The notes under the pieces: model-generated
What the model was told of the DNA's origin: nothing
Databases searched by the model: none
What the model saw: only the letters and a program-made list of their open reading frames with translations
Shown: positions 4,166 through 37,974 of the stretch, in pieces
Position numbering within the stretch: the first letter of the stretch is position 1
Layout of the letters: every line of letters starts with the position of its first letter
NCBI GenBank assembly: GCA_036702865.1
Contig: DATNQD010000060.1
Coordinates: 1 to 37,974, forward strand
DNA from: Trichocoleus sp.
GTDB lineage: Bacteria; Cyanobacteriota; Cyanobacteriia; Elainellales; Elainellaceae
Direction of reading: 5' to 3'
DNA: 37,974 bases
Made by a program: the position numbers and the translations under genes

Positions 4166-4191
4166 GATTAAGTGACTCGATTAAGTGACTC
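4166..4191. repeat. 13-bp perfect tandem duplication at the aminotransferase stop codon
   Basis: GATTAAGTGACTC occurs at 4166-4178 and again at 4179-4191. The second copy covers the first two bases of the minus-strand TGA stop (4190-4192). Confidence 0.9.
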
Positions 4192-5470
4192 AATGCGTAG
4201 CAATTTCGCTTAAAACAGTCAGCAATCGATCGATTTCTTCGAGCGTGTTGTAATGCACCAAGCCGATGCGTACCATGCCACCGATCGCTTCCACTCCTAA
4301 TCGTTCGGTCAGGTTCAGGGCATAGTAATTGCCGTTCCAGGTAAAAATGCCTTGCTCGCCCAAAATTTCGGCAAGCTGACGTGGCTCATAGCCTTCCAGA
4401 CGAATTGCGACTGTAGGAGTTCGTTGGTCAAAGCGATCGGGTTCTCTGATGCCAAAGAACTGTAAGCCTGGAATCTGAAGCAGCCCGGAGATTAGAACTT
4501 CAGATAAATTGTGCTCATAGGTTTTGATTGCTTGCATCGCGGCAACCAGCGCCGATCGACGGTTTTTACTGCCAGGAGCGACCTGATAGCCAATCTGAGC
4601 CAGATAATCGATCGCAGCAGTGGTGCCTGCCATCGCTTCGTGGTTTTGCGTTCCGGTTTCCCAACGATGGGGAATGGTGTCCCAGGATGGACGAACTTTA
4701 TAGGGTCGTAGACGGGTGAGATGCTCTGCCTTGCCATAAAGAACTCCGGCATGAGGCGCAAAAAACTTGTAGGGGGAGCAGGCGAGAAAGTCGCAGTCTA
4801 AGGCTTGGACATCGATCGCGCCATGAGGTGCATAGTGAACTGCATCAACATAGACCCAGGCTCCGACCGCATGAGCCAACTGCACAACTGCTTTGACATC
4901 GTTGATCGTGCCAACCGCATTCGAGGCATAGCCCATTGCCACCAGCTTTGTTCGATCGGTGATCTGCTGCTGCAAGTCTGCCATGTCTAGCGTGCAGTCT
5001 TCAGGGTGAATATCAACCCAGCGAATCACAGCCCCCTGTTCTTGCAGCATTGTCCAGGGTGTGACATTGGCATCATGGTCGAGTCGCGTCACCACTATCT
5101 CATCCCCCGGTTTTAGTTCACGGGCGATCGATCGACTGATCGCAAACGTCAGCGTTGTCATATTTGCCCCAAACACGATCTCTGTAGGGGTACAGTTGAG
5201 AAAGTCTGCCATTGCTTGATGTGCAGCTTCGATCGTTTGGTCAGTCCGATGACTGGTGAGAAATGCCCCATGTGTATTGGCATTCGCGGTTGCCAAATAT
5301 TCCCCGATCGCCTGAATCACGGATTGAGTGACTTGTGTCCCACCAGGGCCATCAAAAAATACAGCAGGCTTGCCGTTGATTGTTTGCGTCAGTGCTGGAA
5401 ATTGAGCGCGTATCCAGGTGAGATCGATCGGCGGGAGGGCAGGATTTGGGGCGATCGGCAGGAGGGTCAT
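4190..5470 (-). CDS. Class-V aminotransferase, cysteine-desulfurase-like (VC1184 subfamily type)
   Basis: A 426-residue PLP-dependent fold-type I enzyme related to NifS/SufS. The PLP Schiff-base Lys is in CSPYKFFAPHAG (Lys235), with cofactor residues in VYVDAVHYAPHG (Asp209, His212). The N-terminal FFDGPGGTQV and NANTHGAF segments match the cysteine-desulfurase-like family. Cysteines are seen only at about 93, 159, 226 and 231. The C-terminal region where SufS/NifS carry the persulfide-forming Cys (here GNYYALNLTERLGV) has none, so true desulfurase activity is doubtful. It follows the sulfonate ABC genes on the same strand after 148 bases, which suggests a role with sulfur compounds (inference). 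Start is the ATG at 5470. Confidence 0.85.
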   Translation of the reverse strand: MTLLPIAPNPALPPIDLTWIRAQFPALTQTINGKPAVFFDGPGGTQVTQSVIQAIGEYLATANANTHGAFLTSHRTDQTIEAAHQAMADFLNCTPTEIVFGANMTTLTFAISRSIARELKPGDEIVVTRLDHDANVTPWTMLQEQGAVIRWVDIHPEDCTLDMADLQQQITDRTKLVAMGYASNAVGTINDVKAVVQLAHAVGAWVYVDAVHYAPHGAIDVQALDCDFLACSPYKFFAPHAGVLYGKAEHLTRLRPYKVRPSWDTIPHRWETGTQNHEAMAGTTAAIDYLAQIGYQVAPGSKNRRSALVAAMQAIKTYEHNLSEVLISGLLQIPGLQFFGIREPDRFDQRTPTVAIRLEGYEPRQLAEILGEQGIFTWNGNYYALNLTERLGVEAIGGMVRIGLVHYNTLEEIDRLLTVLSEIATH

Positions 5471-5618
5471 GGGTAGGGTTCTCCGTAGCGATGTGAACCA
5501 AGAACAATCTTTAGTCTAGGCGATTGCTCCTTCCTACATCTCTCCGTTCCCATTCTTCTGCTGTTCCAGTGAAAAGTTGCCCCTGTCAGCGTGATTTGTT
5601 TTATCTACCTCTGCTGCT

Positions 5619-6380
5619 CTACCGCTGCAAAATTCGGCTTAAAATTCGAGTCTTTAACTCAGTAAAAGCAGCATCCCCGGAGTCGCGTGGACGAGGCAAT
5701 GCGATTGGCAGATCGAGATCGACTTTACCCTGATCCAAAACGATGACGCGATCGGCAAGATAAACCGCTTCTTCTACATCATGCGTCACTAAAATTGCTG
5801 TAAATTGCTGTTCCTGCCATAGCGTCTGAATGAGTTGCTGCATTTCCAACCGAGTTAAAGCATCAAGTGCACCCAATGGCTCATCTAACAGCAGTAATCG
5901 GGGTTGGCTAACCAGTGCCCGTGCCAGTGCAACTCGCTGCCGTTGACCGCCGGAAAGTTGGGTGATCCAAGCCTGTGCTCGATCGCCTAATCCCACCTGA
6001 TCGAGTGCCCAACGGCTGCGCTGCCGTCCTTGCTTGCTGTGCAAACCCAGTGCCACGTTATCTAACACTCGTCGCCAGGGTAACAGTCGCGCATCCTGAA
6101 ACATGATTCTGGCGTTTGCGTTTAGCCCCTTAAGCGTCCGACCATCTTGAAAAACTTGCCCACTGCTGGGGGATTCTAGCCCTGCAATCAGCCGTAACAG
6201 GGTGCTTTTGCCACAACCACTCCGACCCACGATCGCCACGAACTCTCCTGGCTGCACAGTGAGATCAATCTCCTGCAACACGGAAACAGCATTAAACGCT
6301 TTACTTAAGTGATGAATCTGAATAGAAGTTCCATCACTGACATAATTTGGATTGACGTCGAGCGATTCTAAAACATTCAT
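5619..6380 (-). CDS. ssuB: ABC transporter ATP-binding protein, aliphatic sulfonate type (SsuB-like)
   Basis: A 253-residue ATPase of the nitrate/sulfonate/taurine importer group; it drives uptake from the cytoplasmic face. Walker A is GRSGCGKST (about 52-60), the signature [15 protein letters not shown], and Walker [15 protein letters not shown] followed by the H-loop VTHDVEEA. A strong Shine-Dalgarno GGAGG (6387-6391 on the reverse strand) sits 6 bases before the ATG at 6380, fixing the start. It is the last gene of the ABC block and starts 12 bases after the permease stop, so the two are co-transcribed. Sulfonate rather than taurine or nitrate is inferred from the neighbouring ssuD and ssuE. 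Confidence 0.9.
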
Positions 6381-6392
6381 TGTAATCCTCCT

Positions 6393-7205
6393 TCACTTAT
6401 TCGCGAGATGTTGACTCGGATGCCAGGGCAACCACCAGCGCTCTAAACCCCGCACGATCGAATCTGCAAATTTGCCCAGCAGCGCATAAAGCAAAATGCT
6501 CAGCACCACAACATCTGTTTGCATAAATTCTCTGGCGTTCATTGCCATGTAACCAATCCCAGAATTAGCAGCGATCGTTTCTGCCACAATCAAGGTCAGC
6601 CACATAATTCCTAGCGCATAGCGTACACCAACCAATACACCCGATAATGAGCCTGGAAGAATAATCTGCCAGAACAGATCAGACGATCGAAGCCCATATA
6701 CTTTTCCCATTTCAATCAATCCTGGATCGATCGAGCGAATGGCATAAAAGGTATTGATGTAAATCGGAAAAAATACGCCAATTGCCACTAAAAAAATACG
6801 TGCTGGATCACCAATGCCAAACCAGAGAATGACCAGTGGAATCATTGCCAGGTGAGGAATGTTGCGGATCATCTGCACTGAACTATCCGTGAACTTTTCG
6901 GAAAGAGGTGAAACCCCGTTAAGAACTCCCAAGAACAAGCCAATGCTGCCACCGATAACAAATCCGACTAATGCTCGCCAGGTACTAATCTGCAAATTTT
7001 TTGCTAATTCACCGCTGGCAGTTAGCTGTACTGCTGCCTCAAAGATTTGGGTAGGAGCAGGTAGAATTCGCGTGGCAATCAGTCCTGCTTGCGACAGAAT
7101 TTGCCAAATGATCAGAAGGGCGATCGGCACTAACCAGGGGATGAACTGTTGCCAGGGAAGACGGTTCCAGGCTGATAGGGATGATTTAGAGAACGTGAGC
7201 TGCAT
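6393..7205 (-). CDS. ssuC: ABC transporter permease, aliphatic sulfonate type (SsuC-like)
   Basis: About 270 residues with roughly six hydrophobic segments and the BPD_transp_1 coupling region (EMGKVYGLRSSDLFWQIILP, the EAA-like loop). It forms the inner-membrane channel for the ATPase encoded 12 bases downstream. The ATG at 7205 (MQLTFSK) is preferred; an upstream in-frame TTG at 7232 is possible but has no ribosome-binding site. It lies 52 bases after the SfnB-like gene. This permease/ATPase pair has no adjacent binding protein, so it may work with the lipoprotein encoded at 13109-14167 (inference). Confidence 0.88.
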   Translation of the reverse strand: MQLTFSKSSLSAWNRLPWQQFIPWLVPIALLIIWQILSQAGLIATRILPAPTQIFEAAVQLTASGELAKNLQISTWRALVGFVIGGSIGLFLGVLNGVSPLSEKFTDSSVQMIRNIPHLAMIPLVILWFGIGDPARIFLVAIGVFFPIYINTFYAIRSIDPGLIEMGKVYGLRSSDLFWQIILPGSLSGVLVGVRYALGIMWLTLIVAETIAANSGIGYMAMNAREFMQTDVVVLSILLYALLGKFADSIVRGLERWWLPWHPSQHLANK

Positions 7206-7257
7206 AGATTTGCCAACTGAATTGTGAATCAAAAAAAATGTTCAGGAGCAAAAGAAT

Positions 7258-8445
7258 TTAAGAGTAGAAGTCTGGTGTTGGTAATTTGTCGTTCAGCGCC
7301 CAATCCCCGATCGCTCGAATTTTGTAATCGACTGGATCATGTAAGGTGAAGGTGCGGAGGTTGCGCCAGTAGCGATCGAAGCCATATTGAGCAGCGGTCG
7401 ATCGGGCTCCCATAACATCAAAAATTTTGCTGGTGATGTCTAATGCAATGCGAGTCACAAATGCTTTTGCAGCCGCAATGGCAATAGCACATTCTCCCCG
7501 CTGTTGTGCCGTCAAATTCCATTCTTGTTCCCAGGCTGCTTGCAAGGTTTCACCCGCGCGATCGATTAAGTGGGTTGCTGCTTCCAGGTTTGTCCACATT
7601 TCACCGTAATCATGCAGAATGTAGGGATCGTTCGTCGCTTGCTCGACACCAGAATTAAACCAGGGTCGCGTTTGCGTTCGTGTATAGCTGCGTGCTGCCT
7701 GGAATGCCCCCTGAGCAATCCCTAAGTAAATGTTTGCTAAGTTTAATTGTGTCAGGCAAGCGCGAATCGTACTAAAGGGTTGAGGTGTAGCTGTTCTGCT
7801 GCCCAAGATCTCAGAGCGATCGACCCGGACGTTTTCAAAGAGAACGCTGCCGCTGTCCGTTTGGCGTTGTCCGATGTTATCCCAATCCGATTGAATCAGG
7901 ATGCCTGATCGCTGTGTGGGAATTGCCAGAATCATCAGGTCTGACGTTTCAGCGTGGACTGCAGTAATTGGCAGAATATCTGAGTCTTTAGAACCAGAAC
8001 AAAAGCTTTTTGCTCCCTGCAACCGAAAATCTGTCCCTTCTGGTGTCAAAATGGCTCTTCGATCGAGCGGATTGAGTGCGTTGCACCAGAACCAATTATG
8101 CTGAACGGTTTGGGAATAATACTCTTCCTTCTGTTCCCGAGAACCGAAGATATGCGGAATGATGATACCTAAATGATGGTAAGAAAAAACATGGGCGATC
8201 GAGCTATCCACTGCGGCAAACTTGCGTGTGATTTTGAGTGCTGTAATCCAGCTTTCCCCCAATCCACCGTACTCTTGAGGAATGATTAGTTTGAGTAAGC
8301 CGCTGGCACGAATCCGATCGCGTTCTGTTTTGGGTGTACCCCCAGCTTTATCGCGTTCGATCGCCGTTTGAGCAAATTCAGCCGAAAGGACATCGGCTTG
8401 AGCAAGATAATCAGCGTTTAAGGTGTTACGGGGGAGAAGTTGCAT
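7258..8445 (-). CDS. SfnB/DszC-like flavin-dependent monooxygenase of the acyl-CoA dehydrogenase fold
   Basis: About 395 residues with acyl-CoA dehydrogenase N, middle and C-terminal domains. The C-terminal segments VMGARSTAAQYGFDRYWRN and LHDPVDYKIR are characteristic of the DszC/SfnB branch, whose members use reduced flavin and O2 on organosulfur compounds such as dibenzothiophene or dimethylsulfone-derived substrates. The substrate here is unknown. Reduced flavin could come from the SsuE-like reductase in the same cluster (inference). I selected the ATG at 8445 (MQLLPRNTL); a TTG at 8481 in frame is less likely. It lies between two sulfonate-type ABC units on the same strand, consistent with a sulfur-acquisition enzyme rather than fatty-acid oxidation. 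Confidence 0.82.
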   Translation of the reverse strand: MQLLPRNTLNADYLAQADVLSAEFAQTAIERDKAGGTPKTERDRIRASGLLKLIIPQEYGGLGESWITALKITRKFAAVDSSIAHVFSYHHLGIIIPHIFGSREQKEEYYSQTVQHNWFWCNALNPLDRRAILTPEGTDFRLQGAKSFCSGSKDSDILPITAVHAETSDLMILAIPTQRSGILIQSDWDNIGQRQTDSGSVLFENVRVDRSEILGSRTATPQPFSTIRACLTQLNLANIYLGIAQGAFQAARSYTRTQTRPWFNSGVEQATNDPYILHDYGEMWTNLEAATHLIDRAGETLQAAWEQEWNLTAQQRGECAIAIAAAKAFVTRIALDITSKIFDVMGARSTAAQYGFDRYWRNLRTFTLHDPVDYKIRAIGDWALNDKLPTPDFYS

Positions 8446-8539
8446 AGGAAAGCAGGGGTCAGGGAAAGCGAAGGCTGCCAATCTTTAGGGGAATAGATTA
8501 AGTTACAGAGTTGGGTTACAAATCGATCTCGGTCATTCT

Positions 8540-9313
8540 CTAAAGGGTTACTTCTGTGAGTGGTCTTTCTTCTAAAGGATGTTCTTCATTTGAGTGGTCG
8601 AGTTCTGCCAATAGTCGTTCTTTCCAACGCTGTAAATTTTGTTCAGTGCGTTTGCGAGGACGTGGTAAATCAGGCGTAAATTCTCGATACACTCGACCCG
8701 GATTACCGCGCATCATCATAATTCGATCGCTCATCACCAAAGCTTCCTCAATATCATGAGTAACGAGAATTAGCGTCGGGCGATCATCATTCCAGATGTG
8801 CAGCAGGTGATCCTGTAACGATGTGCGAGTGAGGGCATCCAGGGCACTAAACGGCTCATCCAGAAGCAAAATTGAGGGTTGGGTGACAAGAGCACGGGCG
8901 ATCGAAACTCGTTGTGCCATGCCACCCGATAACTGACGCGGAAGTGCCTGAGCCGATTCAGTCAGACCCACTTTGGCGAGAGTCTCAGCAATTCGAGCAT
9001 CCCGGTTGCGAGTCGCTTTGCCTAAGCCAAATTTGACATTATCCCAAACCGTGAGCCAGGGCATCAAACGCGGCTCCTGAAAAATCACGTCAATTTCTGG
9101 GTGAGGAGCGGTGATGGCTTGATGGTTGAGTGACACCCGACCCGATGAAGGAGGCTCCAATCCTGAAATAATCCGCAGTAATGTACTTTTGCCGCAGCCA
9201 CTCGTTCCGACCAGGCTCACAATTTCTCCTGGATTGACCTGTAGACTGACATCTTCCAGGGCAACAAATCCGTTGCTAAATCGCTTGTAAACGTTCTCAA
9301 TTTGAAGCATCAT
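8540..9313 (-). CDS. ssuB: Second sulfonate-type ABC ATP-binding protein (SsuB-like)
   Basis: A 257-residue ABC ATPase with Walker [12 protein letters not shown], signature LSGGMAQRVSIARAL, Walker B ILLLDEPFSALDAL and H-loop VTHDIEEA. It pairs with the permease ending 10 bases upstream. The start is MM at 9313/9310, preceded by GGAGGGC, a good ribosome-binding site for either codon. It differs clearly from the ATPase at 5619-6380 (LSGGM versus LSGGQ signature), so the cluster holds two distinct transporters rather than a recent duplication. The C-terminal tail is rich in Glu/Leu and of unknown role. The substrate is inferred from context. Confidence 0.9.
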   Translation of the reverse strand: MMLQIENVYKRFSNGFVALEDVSLQVNPGEIVSLVGTSGCGKSTLLRIISGLEPPSSGRVSLNHQAITAPHPEIDVIFQEPRLMPWLTVWDNVKFGLGKATRNRDARIAETLAKVGLTESAQALPRQLSGGMAQRVSIARALVTQPSILLLDEPFSALDALTRTSLQDHLLHIWNDDRPTLILVTHDIEEALVMSDRIMMMRGNPGRVYREFTPDLPRPRKRTEQNLQRWKERLLAELDHSNEEHPLEERPLTEVTL

Positions 9314-9323
9314 GCCCTCCAGG

Positions 9324-10187
9324 CTATCCCTGAGACAGGTAAGAATCTTGCCAGTACAAGAGCCGCTTGCCGATCGCCTCTAAGATTGCATCCGTCAGCT
9401 TACCCAGAACAGCAAACAGAAAAATGCTCGCAATAATCAAATCTGGGCGACCTGTCGTTTGTCCATCTACCAGCAGAAAACCGAGTCCCTGACTTGCGCC
9501 CATAATCTCAGCCGCAACAACAAACATCCAGCCTAGCCCTAAACCGCTGCGCAACCCGACTAGATAGGCAGGAAGTGTCGCAGGCAGAAACACGCGCCAG
9601 ATCAGTTGCAGTTGATTCAACCGATAAACTTTGCCAACTTCAACCAGCTTGCGATCGACCTGCTGCACCCCCATCATGAGATTGAGATACAGAGGAAAGA
9701 AAACACCGACTGCAATCAGCGCAATTTTTGAGGTTTCGTAGATCCCTAACCAGAGCAGAAAGAGCGGGACCCAGGCAAGCGAAGGAATGTTTCGCAGGGC
9801 TTGCAACAATGGATCAAGCAGATCGTGAATCAGCCGAGAATAGCCTGTCAAGGCTCCTAAGAGCGTAGCCACAAAACCCCCCAGGAGAAATCCTAGAAAA
9901 AGGCGATAGAGGGTAATACTGACGTGTCCTAGCAATTCTCCGGTTGTTGCTAAATGACTGAGCGTGAGAGCGATCGTGGATGGAGCAGGCAGTAAGTTAG
10001 GCGGAAATACGCCAATGCGCGACAGAAATTCCCAGAGCAGTAACAAAGTGATGGGCAAAATCAACCCAATCCCCTGACGCAACCTGTTTTTGCGTTTAGT
10101 GGCGCGATCGCTGAGAACGCGATTTGGAATAGATGAAATCAGGCGAGAAGATGGAGTTGAGGTCGAACGGCTCATCAATTTCCGCAT
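9324..10187 (-). CDS. ssuC: Second sulfonate-type ABC permease (SsuC-like)
   Basis: A 287-residue inner-membrane permease with a basic N-terminal tail (about 35 residues) and approximately six membrane segments (for example IGLILPITLLLLWEFL). The EAA-type loop VEVGKVYRLNQLQLIWRVFL couples it to the ATPase. It starts 8 bases after the stop of the binding-protein gene and ends 10 bases before the ATPase gene, a compact binding-protein/permease/ATPase unit. Met1 at 10187 is used; Met5 at 10175 is an alternative. The family includes sulfonate, taurine and nitrate permeases; ssuD/ssuE neighbours favour sulfonates. Confidence 0.88.
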   Translation of the reverse strand: MRKLMSRSTSTPSSRLISSIPNRVLSDRATKRKNRLRQGIGLILPITLLLLWEFLSRIGVFPPNLLPAPSTIALTLSHLATTGELLGHVSITLYRLFLGFLLGGFVATLLGALTGYSRLIHDLLDPLLQALRNIPSLAWVPLFLLWLGIYETSKIALIAVGVFFPLYLNLMMGVQQVDRKLVEVGKVYRLNQLQLIWRVFLPATLPAYLVGLRSGLGLGWMFVVAAEIMGASQGLGFLLVDGQTTGRPDLIIASIFLFAVLGKLTDAILEAIGKRLLYWQDSYLSQG

Positions 10188-10195
10188 CCATTCAC

Positions 10196-11254
10196 TTAAG
10201 AACCAACCGCTTTTTTCACAAATTGAGGATCGATTAGCGCTTCTGCGGTTTGCTCAATGTTGACAGAAGGCTGAACGACACCGCTGCGCTTTAACACATC
10301 CCCAGCCGCGACGATCGCCTGCTTTTGTGAGTTTCCAATCACTGGATCTGATAGATTGGTTCGCTCTAGTTGCTTTGCGGCGACTGCCTCGCTGAGCTTT
10401 GACTCCTTCGCCAGAATTGCCTGAAGCTCTTTGGGGTTAGCAACCGACCACTGTCTAGCTTTCTCGTAAGCAGCAATCACACGTTGCACATAATCAGGAT
10501 GCTCTTGAGCGAACGCCTCGCGCACATTGAGAACACCGTAGCTAATTAAATCAGGATTGCGATAAAACAAGCGTGATCCCTTTTCTAGCTCAGTTTTTGC
10601 CATATGTGGATCGAGTCCTGCCCAGGCATCAACGTCTCCTCGTTCTAAGGCAGCTCTGCCATCAGCATGTTGCAGCGGCACAAGCTCAATATCTTTTTCA
10701 GATAACCCAACTTGATCAAGAGCACGCAGCAAAAAGATGTAGGGATCTGTTCCCTTGGTTGCCGCAACTCGTTTTCCTTTTAGATCTTCCACTTTGTTGA
10801 TTGGCGAGTCCGATCGCGTCACCAATGCTGTCCATTCAGGCTTGGAGTAAACATACACAGCTTTGATAGGATTGCCGTTTGCTTTCCCCAATAGGGCTGC
10901 TGCTCCTGCCGTTGAGCCAAAGTCGATGCTGCGGCTGTTAAGAAACTCCAGTGCTTTATTGCTGCCAGCACTCTGTATCCACTCAACTTTAACGTTGTCT
11001 TTTGTCAAATCTTCTTCCAGCCAGCCCTTCTCTTTGAGAACCAGGCTCACCGGATTGTAGTAAGCAAAATCAACTTTAATGCTGTCAGGCTTTGCGGCAG
11101 TTGCCGTCGGTTGGGCAGCTTGATTGCTACAACTGCTGATGACTAATACCAGACTGAGCGCGATCGAAAATAAGGTAGAAAATCCAGGTAGCGTTTTAGA
11201 ATTAAAGCGATGAAAAGCCGCTTTGAGAATTCCGAAGAGGTTTGACGTTCTCAT
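10196..11254 (-). CDS. ssuA: ABC substrate-binding lipoprotein, aliphatic sulfonate type (SsuA-like)
   Basis: A 352-residue periplasmic binding protein. The N-terminal hydrophobic stretch TLFSIALSLVLVISSCSNQ carries a lipobox with the acylated Cys near residue 41. The mature part has the NMT1/OpuAC-like pattern: FGSTAGAAALL, GKRVAATKGTDPYIFLLRAL and DGRAALERGDVDAWAGLDPH, typical of SsuA proteins. It captures the sulfonate and delivers it to the permease encoded 8 bases downstream. It follows the SsuE-like gene after 82 bases. It is a distant paralogue of the lipoprotein at 13109-14167, sharing the DAWAG/DAWVI region. Ligand specificity cannot be read from sequence. Confidence 0.9.
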   Translation of the reverse strand: MRTSNLFGILKAAFHRFNSKTLPGFSTLFSIALSLVLVISSCSNQAAQPTATAAKPDSIKVDFAYYNPVSLVLKEKGWLEEDLTKDNVKVEWIQSAGSNKALEFLNSRSIDFGSTAGAAALLGKANGNPIKAVYVYSKPEWTALVTRSDSPINKVEDLKGKRVAATKGTDPYIFLLRALDQVGLSEKDIELVPLQHADGRAALERGDVDAWAGLDPHMAKTELEKGSRLFYRNPDLISYGVLNVREAFAQEHPDYVQRVIAAYEKARQWSVANPKELQAILAKESKLSEAVAAKQLERTNLSDPVIGNSQKQAIVAAGDVLKRSGVVQPSVNIEQTAEALIDPQFVKKAVGS

Positions 11255-11336
11255 GAAGACTGCGATCGAAATAGTGGAAGAGAAATGGAAGGGAGATGTG
11301 GGTCAGGAAGACTGCCCAGAATAGCAGTGTGTTGCG

Positions 11337-11897
11337 CTAGCGATTTGCCCCAGCCGCAACGAGAGAGGGTTGAATCGCTGAGATCAGTTCATACACAGAA
11401 TTTTGCAGGCGCTGCTCAATCTCAATGTCAATAAACTGATAGCCGCCGCTGTCTTGCCGCTGTAATTGCGAGTCAACAACATAAACGCCGGACAGAACGT
11501 TCCTTGCGCCCAGAACAGAGAGAACAGGCTTCAGCGCATAGTCGATCGACAGCAGATGGGCGATCGTGCCACCAGTCGCAATTGGAAGAATGGTTTTACC
11601 TGCTAGTGCATTTTGAGGTAATAAATCGAGTAAGGCTTTAAGTACACCTGTATAGGCTGCTTTATAAACAGGTGTGGAGATAATGACTGCATCAGCAGAT
11701 TCAACTGCTGCAACAAACTGTTTAATGTCTGAGTGATCAAATTGGGCAAATAATAAGGCTTCCGCAGCGATGTCTCGCACTGAAGTGAGCTGATGAGATA
11801 CTTGCTCCCGATCGAGAATGGTTTGAGCATATTCCAGCACACCATAAGAGCGAGATGGATGAGAAGGGCTTCCGGCAATTAAGACAACTTTAGGCAT
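11337..11897 (-). CDS. ssuE: NADPH-dependent FMN reductase, SsuE type
   Basis: A 186-residue flavodoxin-fold reductase that supplies FMNH2 to two-component monooxygenases. The FMN phosphate loop is GSPSHPSRS near the N terminus, and the second flavin loop is STPVYKAAYTGVLKALLDLLP, diagnostic of the SsuE family. Length matches E. coli SsuE (about 191). The gene starts 45 bases after the ssuD stop, so enzyme and flavin supplier are coupled. It could also serve the SfnB-like monooxygenase further down the cluster (inference). Confidence 0.93.
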   Translation of the reverse strand: MPKVVLIAGSPSHPSRSYGVLEYAQTILDREQVSHQLTSVRDIAAEALLFAQFDHSDIKQFVAAVESADAVIISTPVYKAAYTGVLKALLDLLPQNALAGKTILPIATGGTIAHLLSIDYALKPVLSVLGARNVLSGVYVVDSQLQRQDSGGYQFIDIEIEQRLQNSVYELISAIQPSLVAAGANR

Positions 11898-11942
11898 AAT
11901 TAACGTTTTCCAAAGAGCAAATGATGATTGAGCAAGGATTAA

Positions 11943-13091
11943 TTAACTGGCATTCGCAGGGATTTTCTCGTTGGCGATAATTTCCCCGATCGGGCTGACA
12001 TAGCGGCTGGGCGTGAACTTTGGCACATCAACCAGCGGCAGCTTCGGGAAAACGAGTTCTGCAAAGCGGTAGGACTCTTCTAAATGCGGATAGCCTGACA
12101 AGATGAAGGTATCAATGCCCAAATCAGCATATTCCTGCATCCGAGCCGCAACGGTATCTGGATCACCGACCAGGGCTGTGCCTGCTCCGCCGCGAACGAG
12201 TCCCACACCTGCCCACAAATTTGGGCTGACTTCCAGGTTTTCTCGTTTGCCATTGTGTAGCTGCATCATTCGGCGTTGCCCTTCCGATTCAGCCTTACCC
12301 AGCGCTGCTTGAGCTGCCGCGATCGTGTCATCATCCAGATATTTGATCAGATCATTTGCCGCATCCCATGCCTGCGATTCTGTCTCACGGACAATGACAT
12401 GCAGACGAATCCCAAAGCGCAAGGTGCGCCCCTGTTCTGCAGCTAACTGTCGCACTTCTCGAATTTTTTCTGCCACCTGTGCCGGAGGCTCACCCCAAGT
12501 CAGATACAGATCAACGTGCTTGGCAGCAACCTGTTTGGCAACGGTAGATGATCCACCAAAATAGAGCGGAGGATAAGGCGACTGAACTGGAGGAAACAAG
12601 ACTTTTCCGGCTTTGACATCAAGATGCTGTCCTGCAAAATTGACCGTTTCACCCCGCATCAGATCGCGCCAAACGGTTAGAAATTCATCCGTGAGTTCAT
12701 ATCGCTCTGCGTGGTTGAGATGAACGCCATCTGCTGCCATCTCTGCTGAGTCACCACCCGTCACAATGTTAATCAGCAGCCGCCCCTGCGACAAGCGATC
12801 GAAGGTTGCTGCCATCCGGGCTGCGACGCCAGGCGAAGTTAAACCAGGACGAATTGCCACCAAAAACTTCATGCGCTTTGTAGCTGAAATTAGGGTGGAA
12901 GCAGTGACCCAGGCATCTTCACAAGACTTTCCAGTGGGGAGTAGTGCGCCTGCATAACCGAGCGAATCGATCGCGCCTGCCAGTTGTCGCAGATAGTCTG
13001 GTGTTAACGCTCGTCCGCCGAATGAGGTTCCCAGATAGCGACCATCGCCGTGAGTTGGAATAAACCAAAGTACGTTCATTTCTTGTGTCAT
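11943..13091 (-). CDS. ssuD: FMNH2-dependent alkanesulfonate monooxygenase
   Basis: A 382-residue luciferase-like TIM-barrel enzyme that splits alkanesulfonates into aldehyde and sulfite using FMNH2 and O2. The N terminus [19 protein letters not shown] and the segments [25 protein letters not shown] and [18 protein letters not shown] are closely typical of SsuD, and the length matches E. coli SsuD (381). The start is the ATG at 13091 (or 13079), 17 bases after the upstream stop; a longer in-frame start at 13124 would overlap that gene. A G-rich stretch upstream may act as ribosome-binding site. It is the second gene of the cluster. Confidence in the product is high. Confidence 0.95.
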
Positions 13092-13108
13092 AATTGACGA
13101 CCCCACGA

Positions 13109-14167
13109 TTATTTTGCTTGCCAAATGGCATCACTGACTTTGATGGGTTTTGGAATCAGCTTGAGCGTTTGAAATGTATCTGCAATTTGCTGCTGACCGT
13201 TCGTCGCTTCAGCATCGATCGCTTTCACTCCGTAGCCTCTTCGCTGTTCTGCCAGTTGCAGTGCAGCCTGATCGATTTTGAGTTCTGTTGAGAGAAACTG
13301 CGCTACTTCAGTCGGATGCTGCTTTGCCCAATCGCTTACTTTGCCCAATTCATCAACCAGTGTTTTAGCTAGGGCAGGCTGTTCATTGACAAACTTCTGC
13401 GTTGAGAGGAAGAAGCCACGATTTGCCACAATTCCCTGACCGTCGCGCAGCACCTTAGCACCGATCGCTTTTTCTGTTGCTGCCAAAAATGGGTCCCAAA
13501 TCACCCAGGCATCCACGCTTCCTTGTTCAAAGGCAGGACGAGCATCGCCCGGTGGCAAGAAAACTGTTTGCACATCGCTATACTCCAATCCGGCTTCTTC
13601 CAGTGCTTTAACAAGCAGATAATGCACATTTGAGCCTTTGTTGAGCGCAACTCTCTTACCCTTCAAATCTGCAACAGTGCGAATGGGAGAATCTTTGCGA
13701 ACAACGATCGCTTCTGCGGCTCCGCCCAAGGGTTCATAGGCAACGTAGGCGAGTGGTGCGCCAGCGGCTTGAGCAAACACAGGAGGTGTCTCGCCTGTAT
13801 AAGCAAAGTCAATGCTGCCCACGTTCAGCGCCTCTAGCATTTGTGGTCCAGCGGCAAATTCGTTCCACTGCACAGTTGTTCCTTCTGTCTGCAATCGCTT
13901 TTCTAGCTCGCCCTGACTCTTCAACAAATTCAAGACAGTTGCAGATTTTTGGTAGCCAATCCGCAGCACCTGCCCTGTAGGAGAAGCTGTCGATGAAGCA
14001 GAAGTTGAGTTGGAAGTAGTACAGGCGGCAATCGTCAGGCTTAATCCTAGACCTACAGCCAACAGCAGGAAAAAGCGTCTGGTAGAACGGGATAACTGGA
14101 GGCTGGCGATCGTCTGTTGCCAGACCGAGAAAGACTTTGTGTTGAGAGCATTAAACCATTGCCGCAT
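13109..14167 (-). CDS. ssuA: ABC substrate-binding lipoprotein, aliphatic sulfonate type, first gene of the cluster
   Basis: A 352-residue binding protein with a long N-terminal tail, a hydrophobic segment [20 protein letters not shown] whose final Cys sits in a lipobox (about residue 49), then a Ser/Thr-rich linker. The mature domain shows the SsuA pattern: [55 protein letters not shown] and DAWVIWDPF. The TGETPP segment is typical of sulfonate-binding proteins. It lies 17 bases before ssuD and is probably the first gene of the transcript, downstream of the candidate promoter at 14311-14339. It may feed the permease/ATPase pair at 5619-7205, which has no binding protein of its own (inference). 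Confidence 0.93.
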
Positions 14168-35266: not shown

Positions 35267-35788
35267 TTAGAAGAAAACATCGAGCTTGGCGCGCCCGGTT
35301 GTTTTAAGCCAGTTTTGCGCCTCAATGTAGTTGTTGGGTGCAACGCGAATGGCGCGCTGCCAATAATCAGCAGCCTGGTCAAAATACTGGTCGGCTTTGT
35401 CTGCGTCTCCGGCTTCTTGTGCTTGCTCTCCCAAATAGTGATAGAGAACGGCAACATTATTTAATGCCTGAGGCATTTTGGGGTTCTGTTCCAGGGCTTC
35501 GTGGTAAAGCTCCAGGGCGCGATCGTGCTCTCCGTTGCTCGCGAAAATTAAACCCATGTTGTAGAGAACATAGCTGCGATCGTAGGGATCTTCTTCGAGT
35601 TTCAGGGCTTCCTCGTAGTTTGCCATTGCTTCTGCATATTCGCCATCCGCCTGGGCAGACATCCCATCCCGATAGTAGGCGAAGGCTTCTTTTGCCTTAT
35701 AGCTCGCTGGCAGCATCTTTAAGATCATGTCTGCCATGACCGTAAAGGTCTTATCAATAAAGTTATCGTTGCGTTGAGATCTGGGCAT
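35267..35788 (-). CDS. ycf3: Photosystem I assembly protein Ycf3
   Basis: A 173-residue thylakoid-associated tetratricopeptide protein, the exact usual length. [27 protein letters not shown] is the conserved N terminus. Three TPR units follow, with signatures [42 protein letters not shown] and [19 protein letters not shown]. Ycf3 chaperones PsaA/PsaB into photosystem I. It lies 107 bases upstream of gatC on the same strand; the start is the ATG at 35788. Confidence 0.97.
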
Positions 35789-36152
35789 AGTTGCCTCGAT
35801 GCATTAGGTTACTAAACGACGGAAATTAAAGCTGAGATGAAAGCAGCATTCCTCCCTAGAATAGCTTGTCCGTTGCTGAAAATGCCGCTGACTTGTTTGA
35901 GAATTTGCTGGGGTTCGATCGGCAACAGGGTACTTAAACCAACTAATTTGTGATGCAAATCAGACAGCTTGTTGTTTTGAGTTACGTAAAGCGGCTGTTT
36001 CGATCAACAAAGGCAAGCTGAGGAGATCACGGAGGACAACCCCTTTAAGTCACGCGATCGCTCCTGGGAAAACCACATACTAAGGTTTATCTTCCTAGCT
36101 TTCTCGCAAGCCACTTCTAAAGCTAATGCCTTACTTTTCCCATTCTGGTCGT

Positions 36153-36182
36153 TCTGATTTTCTCAAGTCTGATTTTCTCAAG
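36153..36182. repeat. 15-bp perfect tandem repeat
   Basis: TCTGATTTTCTCAAG at 36153-36167 and 36168-36182. Confidence 0.9.
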
Positions 36183-36390
36183 AATGTTGTTGTTTTTGCG
36201 GATGGCTCTGTTACCTGGACAAGTGATTGCTCTGAACCTGTTGTCTCACAACCTGTGCCCCAACCCAAGACAATGACGCGATCGATCTCATGCTTGGCAA
36301 TGCCAAAACAGATAGTGACGATTACAACAACAGTTCAAATTTCAGCAGTTTAAAGCCTATTATTGCTGCAACTAACCCTAACCATGCAAA

Positions 36391-36413
36391 AAGCGCCCCA
36401 ATTGCAGGCGCTT
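36391..36413 (-). terminator. Intrinsic-terminator-like hairpin
   Basis: AAGCGCC (36391-36397) and GGCGCTT (36407-36413) form a 7-bp stem with a 9-base loop. A T-run (GGCGCTTTTTGC) follows on the minus strand only. It may stop leftward transcription leaving the putative transposon end. Confidence 0.5.
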
Positions 36414-36503
36414 CTTAACTTCTAGCTTTTCAGCTTCTAATTGTCCATTAAAGAATTGATTTCCAGTTTAAAGAATTATTTTCACTTTTAGTGCTAAATC
36501 TAT

Positions 36504-36549
36504 AAACAGCCTCAAAAGCTTGCTGCATAAATATTCGAGGCTGTTTTTT
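36504..36549 (+). terminator. Strong intrinsic terminator inside the putative transposon end
   Basis: AAACAGCCTC (36504-36513) pairs perfectly with GAGGCTGTTT (36537-36546), with a 23-base loop and a run of six T (36544-36549). No plus-strand gene ends nearby, so it may block transcription entering the element. Confidence 0.65.
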
Positions 36550-36550
36550 G

Positions 36551-36579
36551 TTGATTTACTCTCTAGGCAATCTTTAAAT
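36551..36579 (+). promoter_or_regulatory. Possible tnsB promoter overlapping the 21-bp repeat
   Basis: TTGATT (36551-36556), 17 bases, TTAAAT (36574-36579). The -10 lies within the first 21-bp repeat, so repeat-binding protein would compete with polymerase. Confidence 0.35.
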
Positions 36580-36661
36580 CGAACTACTTCACAAATTTTT
36601 AATTGCCCTTTATTCTTTAAATCGAACTACTTCATTTTTAATTTACCTCAGAAAAGCCGTC

Positions 36662-37837
36662 ATGTCCATATCCAATTCCTCGGAAACTTGCTTTCCTTCA
36701 GAAGGTTCAGAACTGGAACAGGCGCAACAGGGTAGCTCGCCTATCCTTCTTAATGAGGTTTCACCAGGGGTTCAGCAGAAAATCGATCTCATTGATGTCA
36801 TCCTTCAAGCACCTAACAGGAAAGCTCGAAGGGAAGCCATTCTTCATGCAGCCAAGACATTGGGCAAGACGACTCGTACTATCCGCTCAATGATGAAGAA
36901 GGTTGAGAAGGAAGGGGTTGCAACGCTTGGGGTTGGTCGCAAAGACAATGGGCAGTTTCGCATCTCTGACCAATGGTTCAGATTCATTCTAGAAACTTAC
37001 GAGTGGGGACAACGAGAGGGCTCTCGCATCAATAAAAATGGGGTTTATGTTCATTTAGCCGCTTTGGCATCTCAAGGAGAAGCATTACGAGATAAAAACT
37101 ATGCCAATCGCTTCAAGGGCTATTCTGAAGTGCTTGAGGATTTAATTGCAGGAAAACATCCCTCTCATGTAACTGTTTACAAGGTTATTAAGTTTCAGCT
37201 TGAGCAGCAAGAGAGAAAGGTGCGTCATCCAGGTTCGCCTGCTGAACGACAAGTTATCCAAACCACTGAAGGAATTATAGAACTGACTCATAGCAACCAA
37301 GTTTGGCAGTGTGACCATACTAAACTCGACGTTTTGCTAGTCGATGACGACGGAGAATTAATTTTGCAGTTAGACGACAAAGAGGAGGAGATTATCGGTC
37401 GTCCTTTCTTAACCTTGATTATGGATAGTTATTCGGGGTGTATCGCAGGGTTTCATGTGGGCTTTGAAGCAGCAGGCTCTCATGAAGTAGGTTTAGCCTT
37501 GCGTCATGCCATGTTGCCCAAGCTCTATGGACCAGAATACAAACTTCAGAAGGAGTGGAATGTTTTTGGTGTGCCAGGGCATTGGTTAACCGATCGCGCC
37601 AAAGAGTTCAAGTCTAATCACTTGAAGCAGATTTCAATACAGGTAGGCTTCAAGCGGCGCTTGAGGGCTTTTCCATCAGCAGGCGGACTAATCGAATCTA
37701 TTTTTGACAAGATTAATAAGGAAGTACTATCTCATCTTCCAGGCTATACGGGGTCGAATGTAGCAGGACGACCTACAGATGCTGAAAAGCACGCATCTCT
37801 AACATTAGACGAGCTAGAGAAGATGTTGGTGAGCTAA
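36662..37837 (+). CDS. tnsB: TnsB-like Mu-type DDE transposase, 3'-truncated
   Basis: 391 residues versus about 580 for TnsB of type V-K CRISPR-associated transposons. Order: disordered N terminus; helix-turn-helix region about 41-90 (KARREAILHAAKTLGKTTRTI); second DNA-binding region about 100-190; RNase-H-like domain with NQVWQCDHTKLDVLLVD (Asp218), LIMDSYSGCIAGFHVGFEA, HWLTDRAKEFKSNHL (Asp311) and GGLIESIF (Glu345). The stretch LSHLPGYTGSNVAGRPTDAE is very close to CAST TnsB as I recall it. An acidic insertion (LDDKEEE) lengthens the loop after Asp218. The frame stops two codons after LEKMLV, where homologues continue into the C-terminal barrel and TnsC-contact region. An IS4-type transposase end abuts there. 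Likely inactive unless complemented; tnsC, tniQ and any cas12k are not in the window. Confidence 0.85.
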   Translation: MSISNSSETCFPSEGSELEQAQQGSSPILLNEVSPGVQQKIDLIDVILQAPNRKARREAILHAAKTLGKTTRTIRSMMKKVEKEGVATLGVGRKDNGQFRISDQWFRFILETYEWGQREGSRINKNGVYVHLAALASQGEALRDKNYANRFKGYSEVLEDLIAGKHPSHVTVYKVIKFQLEQQERKVRHPGSPAERQVIQTTEGIIELTHSNQVWQCDHTKLDVLLVDDDGELILQLDDKEEEIIGRPFLTLIMDSYSGCIAGFHVGFEAAGSHEVGLALRHAMLPKLYGPEYKLQKEWNVFGVPGHWLTDRAKEFKSNHLKQISIQVGFKRRLRAFPSAGGLIESIFDKINKEVLSHLPGYTGSNVAGRPTDAEKHASLTLDELEKMLVS

Positions 37838-37974
37838 GTACAGGACAAAAATTGCAGAACGTGGAAAAACTCATCGGCGAACACCTCCAGATTCAGTAGT
37901 ATTTGACGCAGGTGGTCGAAACCATAGCGAAAGATACTCTTGGCTCTACGTCCATGTTTTTTGATTGGAATTGT
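37834..37974 (-). CDS. IS4-type transposase, C-terminal fragment (runs off the window)
   Basis: The reverse strand is open from the window edge to TAG at 37834-37836, encoding 46 residues: IKKHGRRAKSIFRYGFD, then HLRQILLNLEVFADEFFHVL and QFLSCT. This matches the C terminus of cyanobacterial IS4-like transposases by recollection. Its stop overlaps the end of the truncated tnsB frame, so the element terminus must lie within a few bases of 37832. This implies insertion of the IS into tnsB. Confidence 0.7.
   Translation of the reverse strand, partial: TIPIKKHGRRAKSIFRYGFDHLRQILLNLEVFADEFFHVLQFLSCT

What the first reader, a model, noticed from the sequence alone, without database searches (positions are those of the whole stretch)
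36662..37974. CAST/Tn7-type TnsB cut off by an IS element
The tnsB frame keeps an intact DDE triad but ends at LEKMLV-Ser-stop, exactly where homologues continue. A minus-strand IS4-type transposase stop codon overlaps the last bases. This looks like a Tn7-like or CRISPR-associated transposon inactivated by IS insertion, or one whose TnsB is now a truncated DNA-binding and catalytic fragment that could still bind transposon ends. The rest of tnsB, tnsC, tniQ and possibly cas12k should lie beyond the IS.
Basis: partly seen in the sequence, partly recalled or inferred. Interest (0 to 1): 0.75.

Follow-up and report, generated by a model that had tools for sequence, protein, structure and literature searches.

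The report
CRISPR-guided jumping gene broken by insertion
In this cyanobacterial genome a CRISPR-guided transposon of a known type has been cut short by a smaller jumping element that landed inside its transposase gene, leaving what looks like an ordinary dead remnant.

Summary
A frame at 36662-37837 encodes the first 390 residues of a TnsB transposase with D218, D311 and E345 intact, and stops exactly at an IS end at 37834. The IS is a 1142-bp IS4-family element; two other copies in this genome have 9-bp target duplications. The TnsB belongs to the type V-K (Cas12k) CAST lineage: V-K TnsB profile E 2.3e-91, and 80% identical to TnsB of a complete V-K CAST in filamentous cyanobacterium CCP2. 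The matching transposon end begins at 36442. The lost part is about 245 residues, not 190: everything after the catalytic core, including parts that ShCAST needs for transposition. The best explanation is a one-ended, immobile CAST remnant. Broken tnsB frames are not rare (10 of 79 related loci). A residual end-binding role is possible but has no positive evidence. New member of a known kind, low interest.

The parts
36437..36441 (.). CTAAT, predicted 5-bp target duplication flanking the tnsB-side transposon end (partner copy not found)
   Evidence: Sequence read. In CCP2 the equivalent 5 bp (AGTAA) stand outside both ends. The partner here was not found.
36442..36661 (+). tnsB-proximal transposon end (right end in the convention of PMC9938897): TGTCC terminus, two TTAAAGAATT repeats (36448, 36468) and two identical 21-bp repeats (36571-36591, 36614-36634); TnsB-binding role inferred
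   Evidence: Alignment that starts at 36442 with CCP2 (71% over 263 columns, E 2e-29, running 38 bp into tnsB) and shorter pieces with G023; repeats; a similar TGT-start end upstream of tnsB in 15 of 17 clade loci scanned.
36662..37837 (+). truncated tnsB: residues 1-390 from tnsB, codon 391 completed and stop supplied by the IS
   Evidence: PADLOC TnsB_0_V-K E 2.3e-91; ShCAST TnsB E 1e-73.
37825..37833 (.). GTTGGTGAG, predicted 9-bp target duplication of the IS (right copy not found)
   Evidence: 9-bp duplications at two other copies, ATTCAGTCC and GGGGCGGAT; junction search negative here.
37834..37974 (-). left 141 bp of a 1142-bp IS4-family element, with its terminal inverted repeat and the 3' end of its transposase (stop at 37836-37834)
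   Evidence: 100% match to C28, C52 and C62; transposase of the C28 copy: NF033591 E 8.5e-88, 294.7 bits against a cut-off of 152.

Best explanation
This is the tnsB-side end of a type V-K CAST that was inactivated when an IS4-family element inserted after codon 390 of tnsB. Shown: the transposon end, a tnsB frame intact up to the insertion, the exact IS boundary, and the V-K lineage of the TnsB. Inferred: the cas12k side of the element was lost, so one end and about the first 390 of some 635 TnsB codons remain. If translated, the 391-aa product could fold into the two end-binding domains and the RNase H-like catalytic core. It would lack the middle, oligomerisation and C-terminal domains and the TnsC-binding hook, so it should not carry out transposition.
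For: Lineage: PADLOC V-K profile E 2.3e-91; ShCAST TnsB E 1e-73 against 5e-17 for the best non-V-K chain; the tree places it with CCP2 and BC1401 (100/98) inside a 19-row clade. CCP2 carries a complete element: both ends, tnsB, tnsC, tniQ, cas12k, array, truncated repeat, and a tRNA-Ala outside the far end. IS: full copy, inverted repeats, 9-bp duplications at two other copies. Loss of the rest. Past purifying selection: dN/dS 0.09 and 0.11 against CCP2 and BC1401. Loss of activity: ShCAST TnsB without residues 476-584, or without 570-584, loses transposition (PMC9371665, passages); this protein ends at the ShTnsB equivalent of residue 366.
Against: Absence of the rest is argued from a 90-contig draft. 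Three IS left ends (C60, C62, C52) but only two right ends (C28, C20) are assembled, so one right flank is missing and the target duplication of this copy is not shown. The order of events is inferred. TniQ, tracrRNA and array were not searched in the own genome. For 10 of the 18 other clade rows cas12k on the same contig was not shown, and one genome (L127) had none; at 27 and 55 kb the cas12k could belong to another element.
Confidence: 0.82

Rival explanations
1. The CAST is interrupted but otherwise still whole: the rest of tnsB, tnsC, tniQ, cargo and cas12k lie beyond the IS and were lost only in assembly.
For: The contig stops inside the IS and the third right-hand IS junction is unassembled.
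Against: Several kilobases of single-copy genes would have to be missing from an assembly rated 100% complete. No other piece of this tnsB, close tnsC, third cas12k or second end was found.
Confidence: 0.13
2. The truncated TnsB is kept as an end-binding protein that represses its own promoter or competes with active TnsB at related ends.
For: The DNA-binding and catalytic parts are intact in frame, the end repeats beside it are present, and the frame shows past purifying selection.
Against: The two other tnsB genes in this genome are only 58% and 44% identical over their best matched parts, and the 18-bp core of the end repeat has no other close copy (besides the two window copies one hit, with 3 mismatches, against 23 for the reversed-pattern control). 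One locus stops at the same residue (L137), but its TnsB continues past that stop, so it is no conserved truncation. dN/dS mostly reflects the time before the insertion.
Confidence: 0.04
3. Assembly artefact: the join between tnsB and the IS is not real.
For: The contig end lies in repeated DNA.
Against: The boundary falls exactly at the IS terminus known from other copies, and 141 bp of IS are read beyond it.
Confidence: 0.01

Closest known systems
Type V-K CAST of filamentous cyanobacterium CCP2 (PVWD01000102.1, the same contig as G010:C58 by length and match)
   Same: TnsB 80% identical over residues 1-390, matching transposon end upstream of tnsB
   Different: CCP2 is complete from end to end with Cas12k, array and tRNA-proximal end; the window keeps one end and part of tnsB. 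PMC9938897 names strain CCP2 among CAST carriers (passage); the passage does not say which of its elements.
ShCAST (Scytonema hofmannii type V-K)
   Same: TnsB homologous over ShTnsB residues 16-366; the model aligns with ShTnsB 36-367
   Different: Separate TnsB clade; cut at the ShTnsB 366 equivalent, so the middle, oligomerisation and C-terminal domains and the hook are missing (domain names from PMC9527255 and PMC9371665, passages)
IS4-family insertion sequences (NF033591)
   Same: Transposase above the curated cut-off, inverted ends, 9-bp target duplications at two other copies
   Different: No difference noted; the window copy is cut by the contig end

Membership tests
Type V-K CAST (as lineage of the remnant) | TnsB of the V-K type | tested here: met
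   PADLOC TnsB_0_V-K E 2.3e-91; ShCAST TnsB E 1e-73 against 5e-17 (PseTnsAB), 5e-14 (Tn6677) and 2e-7 (Tn7); tree
Type V-K CAST (as lineage of the remnant) | TGT-type transposon end with repeats upstream of tnsB | tested here: met
   36442-36661 aligned with CCP2 and in pieces with G023; similar ends in 15 of 17 clade loci scanned
Complete type V-K CAST | Full-length TnsB | tested here: not met
   Frame ends at residue 391; the missing part matches only the C40 and C67 tnsB genes and one hit at E 0.125
Complete type V-K CAST | tnsC next to tnsB | tested here: not met
   Only the tnsC genes of the C40 and C67 elements match (32% and 28% identity) and one hit at E 0.87; the place beyond the IS itself is not assembled
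Complete type V-K CAST | tniQ next to tnsB and tnsC | not tested
   No own-genome search was made with tniQ; the contig ends before it
Complete type V-K CAST | cas12k | tested here: not met
   cas12k matches in the own genome belong to the C40/C57 and C67 loci only (query the C40 piece of 218 aa)
Complete type V-K CAST | tracrRNA and CRISPR array | not tested
   Not searched in the own genome outside the window and C40, where Rfam gave nothing at the gathering threshold
Complete type V-K CAST | Second transposon end with 5-bp target duplication | tested here: not met
   Besides the window, 4 pattern hits with 2-3 mismatches (control 2); on inspection none taken as an end; no second place for the inner repeat
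IS4-family IS | IS4-type transposase | tested here: met
   NF033591, 294.7 bits against a cut-off of 152; Pfam DDE_Tnp_1; tested on the C28 copy
IS4-family IS | Terminal inverted repeats and target duplication | tested here: met
   Ends match; 9-bp duplications at the C52/C28 and C62/C20 copies. For the window copy the duplication is not shown.

The most novel reading that the evidence does not exclude
The IS-truncated TnsB is still made and acts as an end-binding dominant-negative repressor that protects the genome against re-entry of closely related V-K CASTs.
Probability: 0.03. Interest if true: 0.5.

Novelty: new member of a known kind. Interest (0 to 1): 0.15.

Why it matters
It adds one clear case of how CRISPR-guided transposons die in cyanobacteria: a common IS breaks tnsB and the rest of the element is no longer seen. 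It also points to a TnsB clade, separate from ShCAST, whose complete members (such as CCP2) could be tested for activity. The remnant itself changes no current view.

Tried and rejected
Empty-site approach: a protein search with the neighbouring gene (35267-35788) gave a match in 35 of 35 genomes, one of them (G020) only weak. The 871-bp stretch 35790-36660 was then compared with the 29 other loci kept: one matched over 44 bases (L107), two over 14 bases, the rest not at all. So no uninterrupted site could be read.

tRNA next to the tnsB-side end: none in the window. Of the 79 loci, 55 were handed to ARAGORN; 51 have no tRNA in the DNA held and four (L139, L151, L164, L166) have one 2.4 kb or more before the tnsB frame. 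This is no evidence against CAST: in PMC9938897 the tRNA lies at the other end (passages), and in CCP2 it does.

Second end: of the four further hits of the end pattern, one (C53:1408) is followed by CTAAC, one base off the predicted CTAAT. I looked at it again: no end-type repeats, no IS end and no tRNA near it, and ordinary frames on both sides. Rejected as chance.

Recurrent truncation at residue 390: considered because L137 stops at the same place. tblastn shows TnsB continuing past that stop, so it is an independent broken gene. Of 79 loci, 10 have frames ending under 100 residues past residue 390 (the cut-off is mine); L133, L137 and L197 continue as TnsB past the stop.

Weak or empty searches: Pfam at the default threshold gave no family for the window protein; rve came at E 0.0016, below its curated cut-off, with three further weak names. 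NCBIfam gave only a sub-threshold IS481 match. Rfam gave nothing in the window or C40 at the gathering threshold. Paper searches (listings) showed no title about IS-broken V-K CASTs; this does not show that none exists, and PMC9938897 itself speaks of degenerated cas12k copies (passage).

Full report
What is there. The window is one whole contig (C60, 37974 bp) of a 5.93-Mb, 90-contig genome. A frame at 36662-37837 encodes 391 residues. Residues 1-390 are TnsB. At 37834 the sequence changes to CTAAGTACAGGACAAAA, the end of an IS, which supplies the third base of codon 391 and the stop. The contig stops after 141 bp of the IS.

The IS. A full copy lies at the end of contig C28, 1142 bp long with matching ends. 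Its transposase is an IS4-family protein (NF033591, 294.7 bits, cut-off 152). Two other copies could be paired across contigs by 9-bp duplications: C52 with C28 (ATTCAGTCC) and C62 with C20 (GGGGCGGAT). For the window copy the expected right junction was searched and not found. So three left ends but only two right ends of this IS are assembled, besides a 75-bp left-end piece in C40.

The TnsB. It matches the PADLOC V-K TnsB model at E 2.3e-91 and ShCAST TnsB at E 1e-73, far ahead of PseTnsAB (5e-17), Tn6677 (5e-14) and Tn7 TnsB (2e-7). The triad D218, D311, E345 is invariant in 31 aligned rows. In a tree of 74 rows it groups with CCP2 and Phormidesmis priestleyi BC1401 (100/98) inside a 19-row clade (100/98) apart from ShCAST. 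Eleven of 85 candidate rows were dropped before the tree: seven with frames under 420 residues and four left with 250 or fewer after trimming. The tree program warns of long branches (own C67, L182, own C40 and others). dN/dS against CCP2 and BC1401 is 0.09 and 0.11, with dS already above 1; for three more distant rows dS was saturated.

Is the clade type V-K? Of 19 handles given to a Cas12k search, 18 were searched (L121 not held) and 17 had a match; the Spirirestis genome (L127) had none. By matching contig lengths, 8 of the 18 non-window clade rows (CCP2, Nostoc NMS7, KVJ20, FACHB-152, FACHB-892, Dendronalium L134, N. linckia, G023) have cas12k on the same contig and strand downstream of tnsB, about 4 to 55 kb away; for the other ten this was not shown. 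CCP2 has everything on one 18.8-kb contig: tnsB-side end, tnsB, tnsC, tniQ, cargo, cas12k (NF038191 E 2.5e-199), a repeat array, a truncated repeat followed by a spacer whose first 14 bases match the tRNA-Ala just outside the far end, and AGTAA outside both ends. In PMC9938897 (passages only) the tRNA-side end is called left, so the window holds the right end; that paper names strain CCP2 among CAST carriers.

The transposon end. Similarity to CCP2 and G023 upstream of tnsB begins at 36442 with TGTCC. Of 17 clade loci scanned for such an end, 15 have one and L129 and L131 gave no clear one. Repeats lie at 36448/36468 and 36571/36614.

What is missing. With CCP2's TnsB C-terminal part as query, only the two other own tnsB genes match, plus a hit at E 0.125; with its TnsC only the C40 and C67 loci, plus a hit at E 0.87. 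cas12k is found only at C40/C57 and C67. The end pattern has one perfect hit, the window, and four others with 2-3 mismatches (reversed-pattern control: 2); none has supporting features in what I inspected. The inner repeat has no close second place. TniQ, tracrRNA and arrays were not searched genome-wide. Hence the rest of the element is probably gone, though a draft assembly cannot prove it.

What the product could do. A predicted model (mean pLDDT 75.5, pTM 0.49) aligns with ShTnsB residues 36-367 (Z 23.6, 321 residues; rmsd 16.6, so the domains are placed differently), and its core aligns with retroviral integrases. The Mu-transpos_C domain of CCP2 TnsB lies at 431-484, beyond the cut. ShTnsB has NTD1, NTD2, DDE, middle, oligomerisation and C-terminal domains (PMC9527255, passages), and loss of its last 109 or last 15 residues abolishes transposition (PMC9371665, passages). 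The window protein ends at the equivalent of ShTnsB 366 and lacks all of that, so it should be inactive as a transposase; this is inferred by homology, not tested.

Verdict. A one-ended remnant of a V-K CAST broken by an IS: real, well explained and ordinary. Broken tnsB frames occur in 10 of 79 related loci.

Noticed in passing
L012 (own contig C40) 75-4164: A second V-K-type CAST in the same genome with full tnsB, tnsC and tniQ frames, whose cas12k frame breaks off at 218 aa in a 141-bp stretch shared with contig C57.
   Followed up: partly
own contig C67 about 110372-130194 (L064, L082): A third V-K-like element with tnsB, tnsC and tniQ frames and a cas12k frame of 651 aa about 18 kb away; its TnsB is only 44% identical to the window's over the best matched part.
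   Followed up: partly
L127 (Spirirestis rafaelensis MAG): Carries a tnsB of this clade, but no cas12k was found in the genome.
   Followed up: no
own contigs C48, C68, C32, C4, C64, C12: Related IS copies, 74-80% identical at the left end (65% over a full-length copy in C64); the CTAAGTAC terminus was read in C48, C68 and C32.
   Followed up: no
L005/L023 (own contig C40) 7156-7231: A 75-bp piece of the left end of the same IS without the rest.
   Followed up: no
window 4190-14167: A run of minus-strand genes that looks like sulfonate uptake and use (two ABC transporter sets, binding proteins, monooxygenase-like proteins); names are from recall on reading the translations, not from a search.
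   Followed up: no
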